This document shows, piece after piece, positions 1,339 through 6,088 of a DNA stretch of 6,186 nt. Positions within the stretch are counted from its first letter, which is position 1, and each line of letters opens with the position of its first letter. The position numbers and the translations under genes are program-made. The notes under the pieces are model-generated. The model searched no databases. It saw only the letters and a list, made by a program, of their open reading frames with translations, and had not been told where the DNA came from. Source of the DNA: a bacterium (lineage in GTDB: Bacteria; UBP18; UBA7526); assembly GCA_030619985.1 (NCBI GenBank), contig JAUXAI010000064.1:1-6186 (forward strand), written 5' to 3'.

Positions 1339-2550
1339 TTAACTCCTTCCTAAACCGAATTCCTTATGTAATGACCTCACTGCTCTCTTGACCTCTTTTT
1401 CCCCAATGACACAGGAGATCTTTATCTCACTGGTTGAAATCATCTCAATATTTATTCCCTCTTTTGCTAAGCAGGAGAACATCCTGGCGGCCACTCCGGG
1501 ATGGGACCCCATTCCCACTCCCACAATAGAGACCTTGGCCACTTCCTTGCTTGAGGCCACTCCCTTGGCTTTTATTCTTTTTGCTATTTCCTTGATAGCA
1601 GGCAGGGCCTTCCCCAGATCAGCCCCTGCTATGGTAAAGGAAACATCCGTCAGACCCTTTAGGCTGGCAGATTGGATGATCATATCGACATTGATGTTTT
1701 TCTTTGCTATCTCACTAAAAATAGCAGCGGCAATCCCCGGCCTATCAGGAACACTCTGAATGGTAATTTTCGCCTGATTCTTATCATAGGTGACCCCGCA
1801 GATCTCCGGGGCCTCCAGGCCCTTCTTGACGATCATGGTCCCCTCCTTATTAGAAAAACTTGGGCGAACATGCAATTTTACATTATATCTCTTGGCTAAT
1901 TCCACGCTTCTGAGCTGCATTACCTTTGCTCCCAGGGATGAGAGTTCCAGCATCTCATCATAGGAAATCCTCTTTAGTCTTTTAGCAGAAAGAACCATTC
2001 TGGGATCTGCAGTATAGATTCCCTCCACATCGGTATATATCTCACAGGAATCGGCTTTCAAGCTGGTAGCCAAGGCAACGGCTGTAGTATCGCTTCCTCC
2101 CCGACCTAAGGTAGTGATATCCTCTTCCCGGCTTATCCCCTGAAAGCCAGCTACTACAACTACCTTTCCCTTTTTTAATTCCTTCTTTATTCTTTCAGTA
2201 TCTATGGAGAGGATCCTGGCTTTAGTATGGGCGGTATCGGTGAGAATCCTGACCTGAGGGCCGGTGAAGGAGATAGCCGGACAGCCTAAAGAATGCAGGG
2301 CCATGGTTAAAAGGGAGATGGAGATCTGCTCTCCAGTAGCCAGGAGCATATCCACTTCCCTCTCCGGAGGATGGGCAGTTATCTCATAGGCGGAGGAGAG
2401 AAAGCGGTCTGTGGTATCACCAGGAGCAGAAACCACGACCACTACCTTATTCCCCTTCTTCGCGGTCCTCTTGATCCTCCGGGCTACACTCTTAATCTTC
2501 TCGACATCAGCGACTGATGACCCTCCATATTTTTGAACAATTAAAGGCAT
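1339..2550 (-). CDS. lysC: Aspartate kinase, single-function, with two C-terminal ACT domains
   Basis: Phosphorylates L-aspartate to 4-aspartyl phosphate, the entry step to lysine/diaminopimelate, threonine and methionine; cytosolic. The 403-residue length matches the B. subtilis LysC / C. glutamicum Ask class (about 400-420). The kinase domain has KYGGSSVA (7-14), VSAPGDTTDRF (40-50), TLGRGGSDTTAVALA (147-161) and TDVEGIYTADPR (173-184). Two ACT domains follow, around 261-310 (QSVPDRPGIAAAIF) and 339-400 (VGMGSHPGVAARMF, ISTSEIKISCVI). Such domains bind lysine and/or threonine for feedback control; which effector applies here cannot be read from sequence. The ATG at 2550 overlaps the 3' end of thrB by 10 nt and follows AGAAGG with a 6-nt spacer. 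An internal ATG at codon 239 with a perfect Shine-Dalgarno could give a separate 165-residue beta subunit (listed separately). There is no homoserine dehydrogenase fusion; hom is a separate gene upstream. Confidence 0.97.
   Translation of the reverse strand: MPLIVQKYGGSSVADVEKIKSVARRIKRTAKKGNKVVVVVSAPGDTTDRFLSSAYEITAHPPEREVDMLLATGEQISISLLTMALHSLGCPAISFTGPQVRILTDTAHTKARILSIDTERIKKELKKGKVVVVAGFQGISREEDITTLGRGGSDTTAVALATSLKADSCEIYTDVEGIYTADPRMVLSAKRLKRISYDEMLELSSLGAKVMQLRSVELAKRYNVKLHVRPSFSNKEGTMIVKKGLEAPEICGVTYDKNQAKITIQSVPDRPGIAAAIFSEIAKKNINVDMIIQSASLKGLTDVSFTIAGADLGKALPAIKEIAKRIKAKGVASSKEVAKVSIVGVGMGSHPGVAARMFSCLAKEGINIEMISTSEIKISCVIGEKEVKRAVRSLHKEFGLGRS
1343..1348 (-). promoter_or_regulatory. 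Ribosome binding site of cimA
   Basis: AAGGAG on the minus strand lies inside the last codons of lysC. A 7-nt spacer that includes the lysC stop TAA separates it from the cimA ATG at 1335. It fixes the cimA start and implies translational coupling with lysC. Confidence 0.75.
1834..1848 (-). promoter_or_regulatory. Internal ribosome site and ATG in lysC, probable start of aspartokinase beta subunit
   Basis: On the minus strand AAGGAGG (1848-1842) is followed by a 5-nt spacer and an in-frame ATG (1836-1834), which is Met239 of LysC. Translation from here would give a 165-residue protein running to the lysC stop and containing both ACT domains without the kinase domain. In B. subtilis and C. 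glutamicum, lysC is known to make an alpha2beta2 enzyme whose beta subunit (about 160-170 residues) starts at the equivalent place. This site matches the consensus better than that of the full-length protein, so production of the beta subunit is a good inference but is not proven. Confidence 0.7.
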
Positions 2551-3488
2551 ACTGCACCTTCTCGATCGATATCTAGGATCTTATAATGACTTTCGTGACC
2601 TGCCTTCTGAAAAGTACTGACCATGGCCTGGCCTATTTCTTTATTTTTCTCTTCACTATTTCCAATGGAGAAGGCAGCAATGGTAGAGCCAGAACCGCTC
2701 AAGAATACTCCTTTAGCCCCGTTAGCTAAAGCAGCCTTAAATACCCTTTCCATTCCTGGGATTAACTTTGCCCGATAGGGCTGATGAAGCCTATCCTGAG
2801 TGGCGATATCGAGAAGCCTGAGATTGCCCTGGGCTAAAGAGGAGACGAGTAGGGCGGTTTTACCCATATTAGCAACCGCATCCTCTAAGGATACCTCCTC
2901 AGGTAAGACTTCCCTTGCCTTTTTAGTAGAAACCTCGAAATCAGGGATGGCCAAAACAATTTTTAATTCTTCAGGTAGTCCTATTTTGAGATATTTCACT
3001 TCCTTTTTAGCCATTCCCGTATTCCCGGGAATTCGGGAATGAGACTTTACCTCTACCAGATAGGAGATGGTTAGGCCTCCCACCAGTGCTGGGGTGACGT
3101 TATCCGGATGACCCTCCAATCTTGCCGCTATTTTAAGGATCTCATCTTGAGATAATTTATCTCCTATCAATCTATTGGCGGCCACCAAGGCTCCGACGCG
3201 TGCCGCAGCAGAACTTCCCAATCCCCTTGCTAAGGGGATGTTATTGATGAGTTTTAGGTTTACGATTAACGGTTTACCGTTTACGGTCTTAAAGACTTCC
3301 TGGGCTGCTTGGTAGACGATATTCAACTCATCCTTGGGCAGAGAATCCGCTCCTTCTCCTTCAATTTCGATAGAGAGCCTATCACTCTTCTCTATCTCCA
3401 CAGTATTATATAGTTTTAGAGCGAGGCCTAAAACATCATAGCCCGGCCCTAAATTTGCTGTAGTGGCTGGAACCCGAACTCTTACCAT
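2541..3488 (-). CDS. thrB: Homoserine kinase (GHMP family)
   Basis: Transfers phosphate from ATP to L-homoserine to give O-phosphohomoserine, the substrate of ThrC; cytosolic. The protein is 315 residues, slightly above the usual ~300. GHMP motifs appear in order: VPATTANLGPGYD (6-18), the ATP-binding loop PLARGLGSSAAA (85-96), EGHPDNV (125-131) and the C-terminal GVFLSGSGSTIAAF (260-273). The MVRVRVPATTANLGPG opening is canonical, which supports the ATG at 3488. A modest AAGG lies 8 nt upstream. Residues about 147-163 look like extra sequence between two strands. Ten of them, HSRIPGNTGM (150-159), are encoded by a near-perfect DNA palindrome, so this is probably an in-frame repeat insertion in a surface loop. 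The conserved motifs on both sides are intact, so the enzyme is probably functional. Its 3' end overlaps lysC by 10 nt; its 5' side faces the repeat-filled gap after thrC. Confidence 0.96.
   Translation of the reverse strand: MVRVRVPATTANLGPGYDVLGLALKLYNTVEIEKSDRLSIEIEGEGADSLPKDELNIVYQAAQEVFKTVNGKPLIVNLKLINNIPLARGLGSSAAARVGALVAANRLIGDKLSQDEILKIAARLEGHPDNVTPALVGGLTISYLVEVKSHSRIPGNTGMAKKEVKYLKIGLPEELKIVLAIPDFEVSTKKAREVLPEEVSLEDAVANMGKTALLVSSLAQGNLRLLDIATQDRLHQPYRAKLIPGMERVFKAALANGAKGVFLSGSGSTIAAFSIGNSEEKNKEIGQAMVSTFQKAGHESHYKILDIDREGAVCL
2555..2562 (-). promoter_or_regulatory. Ribosome binding site of lysC inside thrB
   Basis: AGAAGG (2562-2557) lies within the last thrB codons, 6 nt before the lysC ATG at 2550. 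Because thrB terminates only after the lysC start (10-nt overlap), the two are likely coupled in translation. The match is weaker than that of the internal site at 1848-1842. Confidence 0.6.
3012..3041 (-). repeat. 30-bp near-perfect palindrome inside thrB coding sequence
   Basis: The stretch is symmetric about the CCC/GGG centre at 3026/3027. Fourteen of fifteen base pairs match, with outer arms CATTCCCG and CGGGAATG; the only mismatch is 3020 against 3033. It encodes ThrB residues 150-159 (HSRIPGNTGM), a peptide with none of the conserved GHMP motifs, in a segment where ThrB proteins are normally shorter. Its size and symmetry suggest a mobile palindromic element that landed in frame, not a terminator, since it lies mid-gene with no T run. 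Confidence 0.8.
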
Positions 3489-3496
3489 AATAAATA

Positions 3497-3500
3497 CCTT
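3497..3500 (-). promoter_or_regulatory. Weak ribosome binding site of thrB
   Basis: AAGG precedes the thrB ATG at 3488 with an 8-nt AT-rich spacer. It lies between the start codon and the first TATCAGG repeat, so the repeats stop just short of the translation signal. Confidence 0.5.
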
Positions 3501-3505
3501 AAAAG

Positions 3506-3544
3506 TATCAGGATATCAGGGAATCCGGACATCAGGGTATCAGG
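3506..3544. repeat. Cluster of four TATCAGG-type repeats
   Basis: TATCAGG occurs at 3506-3512, 3514-3520 and 3538-3544, with the variant CATCAGG at 3530-3536. These are the reverse complement of the CCTGATA core of the tandem block at 3691-3728, giving the thrC-thrB gap inverted ends. Confidence 0.65.
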
Positions 3545-3567
3545 AATACCCGATCACCAATTCCTGA
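3540..3567. repeat. 8-bp inverted repeat (hairpin) in the thrC-thrB gap
   Basis: TCAGGAAT (3540-3547) pairs perfectly with ATTCCTGA (3560-3567) across a 12-nt loop. No T run follows on either strand, so it is not a convincing intrinsic terminator. Confidence 0.55.
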
Positions 3568-3640
3568 AATCGGAGAACTGTTAATAGAAGTCCGAAAACG
3601 GTAGGGAAATCGGAAATCAGTTATTGTTTCAGTTTTCTAT

Positions 3641-3670
3641 CTTCTGTTTTCTCTACTGACTTCTGTTTTC
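3641..3670. repeat. Direct repeat of an 11-mer, 19-bp period
   Basis: CTTCTGTTTTC occurs at 3641-3651 and 3660-3670, each followed a few bases later by an ACTGA word. Together they look like two degenerate copies of a ~20-bp unit leading into the CTGATAAC tandem block. Confidence 0.6.
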
Positions 3671-3690
3671 CAACAACTGATTTCTACCAA

Positions 3691-3728
3691 CTGATTACCT
3701 GATAACCCGATAACCTGATAACCTGATT
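3691..3728. repeat. Tandem 8-bp repeat, consensus CTGATAAC
   Basis: Four consecutive 8-mers are CTGATTAC (3691), CTGATAAC (3699), CCGATAAC (3707) and CTGATAAC (3715), followed by a partial copy CTGATT (3723-3728). On the coding strand the repeats begin immediately at the thrC stop codon TAA (3730-3728), so the array starts exactly where the gene ends. Confidence 0.8.
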
Positions 3729-4804
3729 TAGTAACCCAATTCCTTCACTACTGCTTCCAATGTTGGGGGGAGGACCTTTGGCTTTTTTGCCAGGGCAATG
3801 GCCCTATTTGGATCCTTCAGTCCATGACCAGTCAAGATGCAGACCACTAATGGTCGTGATCGGTGATCAGTAATCGGTGATCGGTGAAGTTCTTCTTTGA
3901 AGTAGCCTTGTTTGTGTAACTTAAGTAGGCCAGCGACCGAGGCCGCAGAGGCCGGCTCCACGAATATCCCCTCCTGAGAAGCGATTAGCCTGTAGGCATC
4001 AAGGATCTCTTCATCCGTTACTTTATCTATCAGCCCTCCGGACTCATCCCGGGCTTCCTCCGCTTTCTTCCAGGAAGCAGGGTTACCGATCCTTATTGCC
4101 GTGGCAATGGTCTCCGGTTTTTCAACCACCTTTCCCTCAACAATAGGAGCGGCACCAGCCGCTTGAAAGCCAAGCATCTTCGGTAGAAATTTAATCTTCC
4201 CCTTTTCTTTATATTCCTTATACCCTTTCCAGTAGGCAGTAATATTCCCCGCGTTCCCTACCGGCATTACCTGATAGTCTGGCGCTTTCCCCAACTCATC
4301 ACAGATCTCGAAGGCCGCTGTCTTCTGTCCTTCAATGCGGTAGGGGTTTATGGAGTTGACCAGTTTTATGGGGTATTTCTCTGTTATCTCCCGGGCAAGT
4401 TTCAGGGCCTGATCGAAGTTCCCTTCAATGGCAATCACCCTTGCCCCATGCATCAGGGCCTGGGCAAGCTTGCCCAGGGCGATGGCTCCCTTAGGAATCA
4501 AGACAATGCAGTCCAAGTTCGCTCGAGAAGCATAGGAGGCAGCAGAGGCCGCGGTATTACCCGTGGAGGCGCACATCACCGCCTTTGCTCCCTCCTCCTT
4601 TGCTTTAGAGACAGCAACCGTCATTCCCCGATCCTTAAAGGAACCTGTGGGGTTTACCCCCTCATACTTGAGATAGATCTCTAATCCCAGGGATTTATTT
4701 AAGGTCTTAGCTTTGATTAAGGGAGTATCTCCTTCATCCAGAGTAATAAACGGTGTCTTCTCTGTTATTGGCAGATAATCCCGGTACCTTTCAATCACTC
4801 CCAC
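3728..4804 (-). CDS. thrC: Threonine synthase (PLP-dependent)
   Basis: Converts O-phosphohomoserine to L-threonine and phosphate using pyridoxal phosphate; cytosolic. The 358 residues fit the short bacterial/archaeal type (about 350-360), without the long N-terminal domain of the E. coli/yeast class. Visible motifs are GDTPLI (25-30), [10 protein letters not shown] (51-60) with Schiff-base Lys57, [12 protein letters not shown] (78-89), the phosphate loop PVGNAGNI (181-188) and [11 protein letters not shown] (322-332). The start is GTG at 4804, directly abutting the hom stop. A perfect AAGGAGG 7 nt upstream and the family-typical [14 protein letters not shown] opening support it. Residues 307-316 ([10 protein letters not shown]) are encoded by four tandem 7-bp repeats and look like an in-frame insertion just before the final PLP-side strand. 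The motifs on both sides are intact, so activity is plausible. TGHGLKDP and the overall form favour threonine synthase over threonine dehydratase. Confidence 0.95.
3858..3885 (-). repeat. Four tandem 7-bp repeats inside thrC coding sequence
   Basis: On the coding strand the unit is ACCGATC; the four copies read ACCGATC, ACCGATT, ACTGATC, ACCGATC. They encode most of [10 protein letters not shown] (ThrC 307-316), between FKEEL and the conserved VVCILTGHG. The 28-bp length is not a multiple of three, so gain or loss of one unit would shift the frame before the last conserved motif. The unit resembles the ACCTGATA words of the nearby intergenic array with one base deleted. Confidence 0.8.
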
Positions 4805-6088
4805 TTAGAGCCCTCCTTCTACCCGGATGAGACAAGACTTGGCTCTCACCACCTTCAGTCGATCGATCTCTCTTAAGGCCTTCTGGATTGAGGACTCTTT
4901 GGCCTCATGAGTCATCATAACGATGGGCACCTTCCCTTTCTCCCGCCTCTCTTTCTGGATGACGCTGGCTATGGAGATCCTGTGTTTCGCCAGGATCCCA
5001 GAGATGGAGGCTAAGACACCCGGTCGGTCAACGGTTGTGAAATGAATGTAGTATCTTGTCTCCACCTCCCCCATACTCTTAATCTTCAAAGGCTCCTTGC
5101 TGAAGTTAGCGGATAGGAATCGGCCGCCTGACTTGACCAGATCCATGATATCCGCTACTACAGCACTCGCTGCGGGAAATCCTCCTGCTCCTCTTCCGTA
5201 GAACATACTCCTCCCTATGAGATCTCCTCTTACATAGATGGCATTATAGGCCCCATCCACCGCTGCCAGGAGATGCTCTTGGGGGATCATGGTGGGATGA
5301 ACCCTGGCCTCTAAAGAACCGTTGCTCTCCTTGGCAATGGCCAGTAGCTTCACAATATAGCCGAACTCCTTGGCATATTGAATATCTTGAGAAGTGATCT
5401 TCGTAATACCTTCCCTATAGATATCCTTTAAGTCTACGAAACCCTCGAAGGCCAAAGTAGAGAGAATGGTCAACTTATGGGCAGAGTCTATCCCCTCTAC
5501 ATCTAAAGAAGGGTCCCTTTCCGCATAGCCCTTGGCCCGGGCGTCCCTCAGGGCCTCCTTAAAGCTCGATCCATAGTGGCTCATTCCAGAGAGAATGTAA
5601 TTCGCTGTGCCATTGATGATCCCGAAGATGAAGAAGATCCTGTTTGCTATCAGACCCTCTCTCAAGGCCTTGATGATGGGGATACCGCCCCCTACACTCG
5701 CTTCAAAATAGATCCCCACTCCCTTCCTTTCTGCCTCCTTAAAGATTCTCCTTCCTTTCTTTGCCAAGAGGGCCTTGTTCGCTGTTACTACTGGCTTACC
5801 TCTCTTGATCGCTCCCATGATGATTTTCTCTGCTACGGGAGAGTCACCGATCAATTCAATGACTATATCTATTTCCGGATCATTTAGGACATCATTTATT
5901 CTCTTGGTTAATATTTTGGCGGGCACTTTTACTTTCCTTGGGGTAGAGATATCCTTATCGACAATCCTCTTGATGACTAACTCAGCGCCCAACTTCCTTT
6001 TGATGAGTTCCTTTCTCTCTTTGAGAATTTTTACCACAGAACTTCCTACGGTGCCAAAGCCAATCAGTCCAATATTAATCTTTTTCAT
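4805..6088 (-). CDS. hom: Homoserine dehydrogenase with C-terminal ACT domain
   Basis: Reduces L-aspartate 4-semialdehyde to L-homoserine with NAD(P)H, at the branch point to threonine and methionine; cytosolic. The 427 residues match the monofunctional ACT-bearing class (about 430). The Rossmann domain opens with GLIGFGTVG (7-15). VTANKALLAKKG (101-112) carries the conserved Lys105, followed by EASVGGGIPII (129-139) and NGTANYIL (159-166). RDPSLDVEGIDSAHKLTIL (191-209) holds the catalytic pair Asp201 and Lys205. A C-terminal ACT domain (about 345-427, TTVDRPGVLASISGILAKH) is typical of feedback control, usually by threonine. The ATG at 6088 overlaps the stop of the upstream SPOR-domain gene (ATGA), and the stop abuts thrC. 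AGAGG lies 5 nt upstream of the ATG. All expected motifs are present and no insertion is seen. Confidence 0.97.
   Translation of the reverse strand: MKKINIGLIGFGTVGSSVVKILKERKELIKRKLGAELVIKRIVDKDISTPRKVKVPAKILTKRINDVLNDPEIDIVIELIGDSPVAEKIIMGAIKRGKPVVTANKALLAKKGRRIFKEAERKGVGIYFEASVGGGIPIIKALREGLIANRIFFIFGIINGTANYILSGMSHYGSSFKEALRDARAKGYAERDPSLDVEGIDSAHKLTILSTLAFEGFVDLKDIYREGITKITSQDIQYAKEFGYIVKLLAIAKESNGSLEARVHPTMIPQEHLLAAVDGAYNAIYVRGDLIGRSMFYGRGAGGFPAASAVVADIMDLVKSGGRFLSANFSKEPLKIKSMGEVETRYYIHFTTVDRPGVLASISGILAKHRISIASVIQKERREKGKVPIVMMTHEAKESSIQKALREIDRLKVVRAKSCLIRVEGGL
4812..4818 (-). promoter_or_regulatory. Ribosome binding site deciding the GTG start of thrC
   Basis: A perfect AAGGAGG lies within the last codons of hom, 7 nt before GTG at 4804. 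The spacer includes the hom stop TAA (4807-4805). It supports GTG 4804 over the second GTG six nucleotides downstream and implies coupling of hom and thrC. Confidence 0.8.

What the first reader, a model, noticed from the sequence alone, without database searches (positions are those of the whole stretch)
3858..3885. Tandem 7-bp repeat read through in frame within thrC
Four ACCGATC-type units encode [10 protein letters not shown] just before the conserved [11 protein letters not shown]. Related threonine synthases go nearly directly from the helix ending FKEEL to this strand. A 28-bp, non-triplet array inside an essential-pathway enzyme means single-unit slippage would frameshift the last ~40 residues, so it is either a tolerated insertion or a possible on/off switch.
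Basis: partly seen in the sequence, partly recalled or inferred. Interest (0 to 1): 0.6.

Follow-up and report, generated by a model that had tools for sequence, protein, structure and literature searches.

The report
Swappable seven-letter DNA repeats in genes
A four-copy, seven-letter DNA repeat inside the threonine-synthase gene is an in-frame insertion in a loop; in this uncultured lineage many housekeeping genes carry such repeats, and related species have a different repeat at the same spot, so it looks like tolerated, fast-replaced DNA rather than an on/off switch.

Summary
The array is real (3856-3887, 4.6 copies of ACCGATC on the thrC strand, in frame) and is an insertion: solved ThrC structures lack about 12 residues there. 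It is not unique and not a switch. Of 85 ThrC genes parsed, 19 carry a period-7 array in this one loop, with unrelated units; a tree needs about 11 changes. In 833 kb around ThrC genes, 11 of 28 in-gene heptamer arrays sit in that loop. In five genomes of the window's family I found 159 in-gene arrays of period 7 or 8, against 19 of period 6, 9, 12 or 15. They lie in ileS, valS, leuS, prmC, lpxK, ahcY, proC and others. At orthologous sites the unit differs in 74 pairs and matches in 16. When the unit matches, length rarely changes. Frame is kept in 106 of 109 comparisons. One genome shows a burst of a single unit, AAAGTCC, at about eight gene sites, which points to copying between arrays there. 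Best reading: tolerated, frame-filtered arrays replaced whole at persistent loops; the copying step is inferred. Closest precedents: cyanobacterial heptamer repeats, Rickettsia palindromic elements. A limited literature search found no description of this pattern.

The parts
3856..3887 (-). Heptamer array, coding-strand unit ACCGATC (variants ACCGATT, ACTGATC), 4.6 copies, in frame in thrC, encodes [11 protein letters not shown]
   Evidence: TRF; translation; genome-wide family of similar arrays
3728..4804 (-). thrC, threonine synthase, 358 aa, GTG start; the array lies in the loop between helix 300-307 and strand 318-323
   Evidence: NCBIfam TIGR00260 1.1e-105; AlphaFold model; PDB alignments
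3489..3727 (.). thrC-thrB spacer with period-8 arrays (3506-3545, 3691-3727) and weak period-7 stretches; 239 bp here, 1-195 bp in relatives
   Evidence: TRF; spacer comparison
3251..3287 (-). Degenerate AAACCGT-type heptamer array in frame in thrB (KTVNGKPLIVN); the congener G001 has ACGAGTT/ACGAATT heptamers at this site
3013..3040 (.). Palindrome ATTCCCGTATTCCCGGGAATTCGGGAAT in frame in thrB; the residues are absent from congeners
2541..3488 (-). thrB, homoserine kinase (operon context)
   Evidence: NCBIfam TIGR00191 1.8e-88
4805..6088 (-). hom, homoserine dehydrogenase (operon context); the Omnitrophota loci L064 and L068 carry arrays in their hom
1339..2550 (-). lysC, aspartate kinase (operon context)

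Best explanation
The thrC tract is one of a genome-wide population of 7-bp (and 8-bp) short tandem arrays in this uncultured bacterial family, also present in Omnitrophota and Desantisbacteria. They fill spacers and sit in frame in tolerant loops of housekeeping enzymes. Shown: (1) arrays occur at persistent sites; (2) between species the unit at a site is usually different, and the unit distances look random rather than stepwise; (3) copy number is mostly stable while the unit stays the same; (4) reading frame is kept almost always; (5) in one genome (G001) one unit, AAAGTCC, has spread to many sites. Inferred: new arrays are laid down as multi-unit blocks in one event, by template switching or illegitimate recombination into an existing array, sometimes copying a unit already resident in that genome. 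Selection keeps only blocks that preserve the frame and are stop-free in all three frames. The peptide itself ([10 protein letters not shown]) has no known role and is probably a neutral, disordered loop.
For: Hotspot: 19 of 85 parsed ThrC loops carry period-7 arrays with unrelated units (ACCGATC, AAAGTCC, CCAGGAT, ACTCCGT, AACACCG, AACTCCA, AAAATCA, GTGCGTC, ACCCGCA and others); 14 of the 19 are outside the window's family; parsimony 11 changes, at least 6 forced by strongly supported branches. 11 of 28 in-ORF period-7 arrays in 833 kb lie in this loop; Markov shuffles give 0 period-7 arrays. Genome-wide: in five family genomes (1.67 Mb sampled), in-ORF arrays of period 7 number 122 and of period 8 number 37, against 4, 4, 3 and 8 for periods 6, 9, 12 and 15; 96 kb of loci from other lineages give one period-7 array. 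Replacement: ortholog pairs with arrays in both are 74 different-unit and 16 same-unit. Example ileS: G000, G002, G003 and G004 have ACCGATC, ACCGTTC or ACCGATT, while G001, inside the window's own genus, has AAAGTCC. Example ssnA: AAAATGC, AAAGTCC, AACTCCG and AGGATCC in four species. Non-stepwise: unit distances at orthologous sites resemble those between unrelated sites apart from the retained identical ones. Stability: same-unit length differences are mostly 0, none are +/-7 aa. Copying in G001: AAAGTCC has 43 hits in G001 against 9, 5, 0, 16 and 16 in relatives; within-site permutation 63 against 42.9 +/- 5.0, 0 of 1000. Junctions: 52 adjacent different-unit arrays against about 4 expected from uniform placement. 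The same unit swapping occurs in an Omnitrophota trio, in thrC and hom, at 84-91% ThrC identity.
Against: The genome-specific unit preference disappears without G001 (18 against 22.0 +/- 3.5), so copying from resident arrays is supported for one lineage only; elsewhere local birth fits as well. The loop unit of L052 occurs nowhere else in its genome. The adjacency expectation ignores that arrays cluster in spacers. ORF calling was simple, genomes are incomplete MAGs, sampling was partial, and orthology rested on tblastn at 60% identity or more. Short repeats can be mis-assembled, and one G003 array is interrupted by a run of N.
Confidence: 0.62

Rival explanations
1. Local birth by replication slippage: each loop independently grows its own heptamer array from a chance seed, and old arrays decay or are deleted; loops recur only because they tolerate insertions. 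No copying between arrays is needed.
For: Units are mostly idiosyncratic outside G001; the L052 unit is found only at its own site in its genome; heptamers are reported as the commonest long SSR in most genomes examined (PMC4679880, citing Mrazek 2007).
Against: Growth one unit at a time passes through frameshifts in ileS, valS and leuS. Same-unit arrays do not vary by three units. In-gene arrays are not enriched for triplet periods. G001 has one unit at many sites.
Confidence: 0.27
2. Phase-variation (contingency) locus: slippage of the 7-bp unit toggles thrC on and off.
For: Unit length is not a multiple of 3; two probable frameshifted alleles at arrays were seen in other genes.
Against: Array length is the same in G000 and G002, with synonymous differences; frame kept in 106 of 109 comparisons; the array class also sits in aminoacyl-tRNA synthetase genes; ThrC is a biosynthetic enzyme, not a surface structure.
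Confidence: 0.03
3. Enzyme-directed array writing: a dedicated system (telomerase-like, or a diversity-generating retroelement) writes unit arrays into designated sites.
For: Persistent sites with wholesale unit change and a one-unit burst in G001.
Against: No RVT_1 (PF00078) and no Y1 transposase (PF01797) match in any of six family genomes, though the controls ring; the genomes are incomplete. Arrays are spread over spacers and many genes with no shared flanking motif noticed.
Confidence: 0.05
4. The arrays are functional, as regulatory RNA or DNA protein-binding sites or as useful disordered peptides; thrC is one carrier.
For: Known heptamer repeats have been proposed as regulator sites (PMC4679880); Borg in-ORF repeats make disordered regions (PMC9879509).
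Against: The unit changes completely between close species at the same site, so no sequence-specific role is kept; the peptide changes with it.
Confidence: 0.03

Closest known systems
Nostoc tRNA-Leu(UAA) intron P6b heptamer repeats (PMC4476775, PMC3488679)
   Same: 7-nt degenerate repeats in a tolerant loop; two unit classes, with whole-region replacement inferred repeatedly at one site; extra non-repeat elements inserted in the array.
   Different: In an intron RNA where repeats pair into a stem; two unit classes only; one site. Here: dozens of units, protein-coding frame, many genes.
TAACTGA repeats of Beggiatoaceae and cyanobacteria; cyanobacterial STRRs; Mrazek long SSRs (PMC4679880)
   Same: Abundant 7-bp direct repeats, mostly intergenic.
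   Different: One fixed unit in Beggiatoaceae, few inside genes and mainly at gene ends. Here many units, in frame in the middle of conserved enzymes, with unit turnover.
Rickettsia palindromic elements (review PMC10969869)
   Same: Short repeat DNA inserted in frame in unrelated housekeeping genes.
   Different: RPEs are about 150-bp palindromic elements with a conserved peptide. Here short non-triplet tandem arrays, sometimes with a small palindrome inside.
Borg tandem repeats (PMC9879509)
   Same: Fast-evolving tandem repeats in spacers and genes, a hotspot in one gene, disordered products.
   Different: The in-ORF examples described there have triplet-compatible units (18, 21, 36 nt) on an extrachromosomal element; here 7 and 8 nt in chromosomal housekeeping genes.
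PARCELs (PMC2996958)
   Same: Mobile repeat coding sequence spread across genes.
   Different: A defined 25-residue amphipathic motif in ORFs without assigned function, many of them membrane-targeted.

Membership tests
Phase-variable contingency SSR | Copy number of the unit varies between close relatives at the locus | tested here: not met
   thrC array has the same length in G000 and G002; same-unit pairs mostly equal length
Phase-variable contingency SSR | Out-of-frame alleles occur at the locus | tested here: not met
   All thrC copies found in the family are open; 106 of 109 array-site comparisons in frame, two probable frameshifts in other genes
Phase-variable contingency SSR | Length variation among reads of one population | not testable with these tools
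   No reads available
Heptanucleotide repeats of the STRR/TAACTGA type | Many dispersed 7-bp tandem arrays per genome | tested here: met
   ACCGATC-type arrays: 32 matches in G000, 9-46 in relatives, reversed control 0; period 7 dominates
Heptanucleotide repeats of the STRR/TAACTGA type | One or few fixed unit sequences per lineage | tested here: not met
   More than 20 unit types in each of the two genomes tallied; units swap between species
Heptanucleotide repeats of the STRR/TAACTGA type | Located mainly between genes | tested here: inconclusive
   Denser outside ORFs (226 period-7/8 arrays in 189 kb against 159 in 1.48 Mb of ORFs) but many are inside conserved genes
Rickettsia palindromic element (RPE) | Conserved palindromic element of about 150 bp with a conserved encoded peptide | tested here: not met
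   The thrC insert is a 32-bp array; peptides differ from site to site
Rickettsia palindromic element (RPE) | In-frame insertion in unrelated housekeeping genes | tested here: met
   thrC, ileS, valS, leuS, prmC, lpxK, ahcY, proC, ssnA
Borg-type amino-acid tandem repeats | In-gene unit length a multiple of 3 | tested here: not met
   In-ORF periods 7 and 8: 159; periods 6, 9, 12, 15: 19
Diversity-generating retroelement or other RT-based writer | Reverse transcriptase gene in the genome | tested here: not met
   PF00078: 0 of 6 family genomes, control genomes ring; genomes 53-93% complete

The most novel reading that the evidence does not exclude
A lineage-wide process writes or replaces whole 7-8 bp arrays at persistent sites, including loops of essential enzymes, drawing on a unit that can sweep through a genome (AAAGTCC in G001). 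It would be an undescribed mode of array turnover that changes protein loops in frame-preserving blocks, possibly with a dedicated enzyme.
Probability: 0.15. Interest if true: 0.85.

Novelty: new variant of a known kind. Interest (0 to 1): 0.6.

Why it matters
Coding repeats in bacteria are usually read either as triplet expansions or as slippage switches. These arrays fit neither: non-triplet, in frame, in aminoacyl-tRNA synthetase and biosynthetic genes, mostly stable in length but unstable in unit. That makes the origin of heptamer repeats, a long-noticed oddity of bacterial genomes, testable, because every in-gene site has a frame filter that limits which events can have happened. It also gives a supply of short, fast-changing loop peptides in conserved enzymes, and warns that such segments in metagenome proteins are neither conserved domains nor assembly noise.

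Tried and rejected
No Rfam family in the window. Dispersal of one family as a general explanation: rejected for Omnitrophota, where the L052 unit is confined to its own site. Genome-specific unit preference as a general rule: rejected after leave-one-out, since only G001 carries the signal. Reverse transcriptase and Y1 transposase as drivers: no match. Of three frame-disrupted comparisons, one (thrB in G003) is an N gap and not evidence. Literature searches for Omnitrophota tandem repeats or frame-preserving 7-bp repeats found nothing on point.

Full report
What was claimed.

Observation. The array is there: 3856-3887, period 7, 4.6 copies, read on the minus strand as ACCGATC-type units inside a complete ThrC of 358 aa. 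The ThrC assignment is secure (TIGR00260, 353.6 bits against a cut-off of 167.1). Matches to a two-unit pattern exceed dinucleotide shuffles (4 against 0.12). Solved threonine synthases have a 12-residue gap at this point.

Not unique in its genome. A three-unit pattern has 23 matches (overlapping matches in an array counted separately) in the 1.25-Mb genome with up to 2 mismatches, and none for the reversed control. All six family genomes hold such arrays.

A hotspot in ThrC. I fetched 80 ThrC loci from public genomes. The segment from EPASA to GHGLKD varies from 35 to 57 residues, with peaks at 37-38 and 44-45, that is +7 aa or three heptamers. Reading the DNA shows why: many species carry period-7 arrays here, each with its own unit. 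By a fixed rule (score at least 9, shuffle p < 0.005), 19 of 85 parsed loops have one, 14 of them outside the window's family. On a ThrC tree built without the loop this needs 11 changes, at least 6 forced by strongly supported branches. In the 833 kb of these loci, period 7 is the commonest array period (44 arrays; the next is 9; none of period 7 in shuffles), and 11 of the 28 in-ORF period-7 arrays are in this one loop. Fourteen loci failed the parsing pattern and were not counted.

Other genes. In-frame arrays also sit in ileS, valS, leuS, proC, prmC, lpxK, ahcY, an asparagine-synthase-like gene and ssnA (family matches; sites). Some sites recur across lineages: before xVATTRPET in valS of a family genome and of two Omnitrophota, in tsaD and hom of two Omnitrophota, in proC and ileS of two congeners (tsaD is my reading of the sequence). 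Across five family genomes (1.67 Mb sampled), in-ORF arrays of period 7 or 8 number 159; periods 6, 9, 12 and 15 together 19. This is the reverse of what slippage filtered inside genes should give. Outside ORFs the density is about eleven times higher (226 in 189 kb). A control of 96 kb from other lineages has one period-7 array.

Unit replacement. At orthologous sites of the five genomes, arrays in both species have different units in 74 pairs and the same unit (at most one change) in 16; 29 pairs have an array on one side only. Unit distances at orthologous sites look like those between unrelated sites, apart from the retained identical ones, so replacement looks wholesale. Direct cases: in ileS, four species across three genera keep ACCGATC-like units and G001, in the window's own genus, has AAAGTCC; in ssnA, four species have four units. 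The same happens in an Omnitrophota trio (L064, L068, L071) in thrC and hom, with ThrC 84-91% identical.

Length and frame. For same-unit pairs, 18 of 29 comparisons have equal length and none differ by 7 aa, the in-frame step of a 7-bp unit (directional comparisons, so some are counted twice). Frame is kept in 106 of 109 comparisons. Of the three exceptions one is an N gap and two look like real frameshifts at arrays, in a B12-binding radical-SAM-like gene of G002 and in a membrane protein of G000 (both names are my reading of the translation). In thrC itself, G000 and G002 differ by two synonymous bases inside the array and one residue after it. These points argue against a switch.

Where new arrays come from. 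Inside G001 the unit AAAGTCC occupies thrC, ileS, both ssnA sites and others (about eight sites), and has 43 genome-wide hits against 0-16 in relatives. Permuting units among species within each site, excluding sites closer than 3.5 kb, gives 63 within-genome matches against 42.9 +/- 5.0 (0 of 1000). Leave-one-out shows that this signal is G001 alone: without it 18 against 22.0 +/- 3.5. Copying between arrays is therefore supported for one lineage, not as a rule. Two different arrays abut 52 times against about 4 expected under uniform placement, which is suggestive but inflated by clustering in spacers. No reverse transcriptase (PF00078) or Y1 transposase (PF01797) was found in six genomes.

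Reading. Shown: genome-wide arrays, a ThrC hotspot, persistent sites with unit change, mostly stable length within a unit, kept frame, one unit burst. Inferred: new arrays arrive as multi-unit blocks, because growth one unit at a time would frameshift aminoacyl-tRNA synthetases; the event is most likely template switching or illegitimate recombination into an existing array. Local slippage birth remains a serious rival (about 0.27).

Known relatives. The nearest analogue is the Nostoc trnL intron P6b loop, where two heptamer classes occur and one has repeatedly replaced the other at one site (PMC4476775). Heptamers are the commonest long repeats in most genomes surveyed and TAACTGA arrays pervade marine Beggiatoaceae, mostly between genes (PMC4679880). 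Rickettsia palindromic elements insert in frame in metabolic genes (PMC10969869). Borg repeats in genes have triplet-compatible units in the cases described (PMC9879509). None has non-triplet, multi-unit, swapping arrays inside conserved enzymes. The literature searched was open-access only.

Limits. MAGs, incomplete and partly sampled; simple ORF calls; tblastn orthology at 60% identity or more; thresholds chosen by me; the table was cut in display, though the counts used all rows.

Noticed in passing
window 2541-3488 (thrB): thrB looks mosaic: the N-terminal ~130 and last ~50 residues are close to congeners while the middle is diverged (65-71% overall), as if recombined; a 28-bp palindrome lies in the diverged part.
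   Followed up: partly
window 3489-3727 and relatives: The thrC-thrB spacer is 239 bp rich in 7-8 bp arrays here, 195, 163 and 120 bp in three relatives, and 1 bp in G001, so arrays inflate spacers in an operon.
   Followed up: partly
L040 (G002 thrB), L042 and L044 (G001 thrC), L071, L080, L119 (thrC): Small palindromic hairpins (for example GGGCACCCCGACAGACGTCGGGG) sit inside heptamer arrays, with heptamers on both sides, as if arrays are landing pads for REP-like elements.
   Followed up: partly
L202, L193, L195, L185, L128 (family spacers and genes): Adjacent arrays are often near reverse complements (for example CCGGTTTG next to AACTGGTT), which would form long hairpins.
   Followed up: no
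L126:19548-19625 (G000) and L156 about 16640 (G002): Probable frameshifts exactly at arrays in a membrane-protein gene and a B12-binding radical-SAM-like gene: rare failed arrays or assembly errors.
   Followed up: partly
G003 sample (L215-L234): G003 has 20 in-ORF period-7 arrays but only one outside ORFs, unlike its relatives; either real or masking/assembly of spacers.
   Followed up: no
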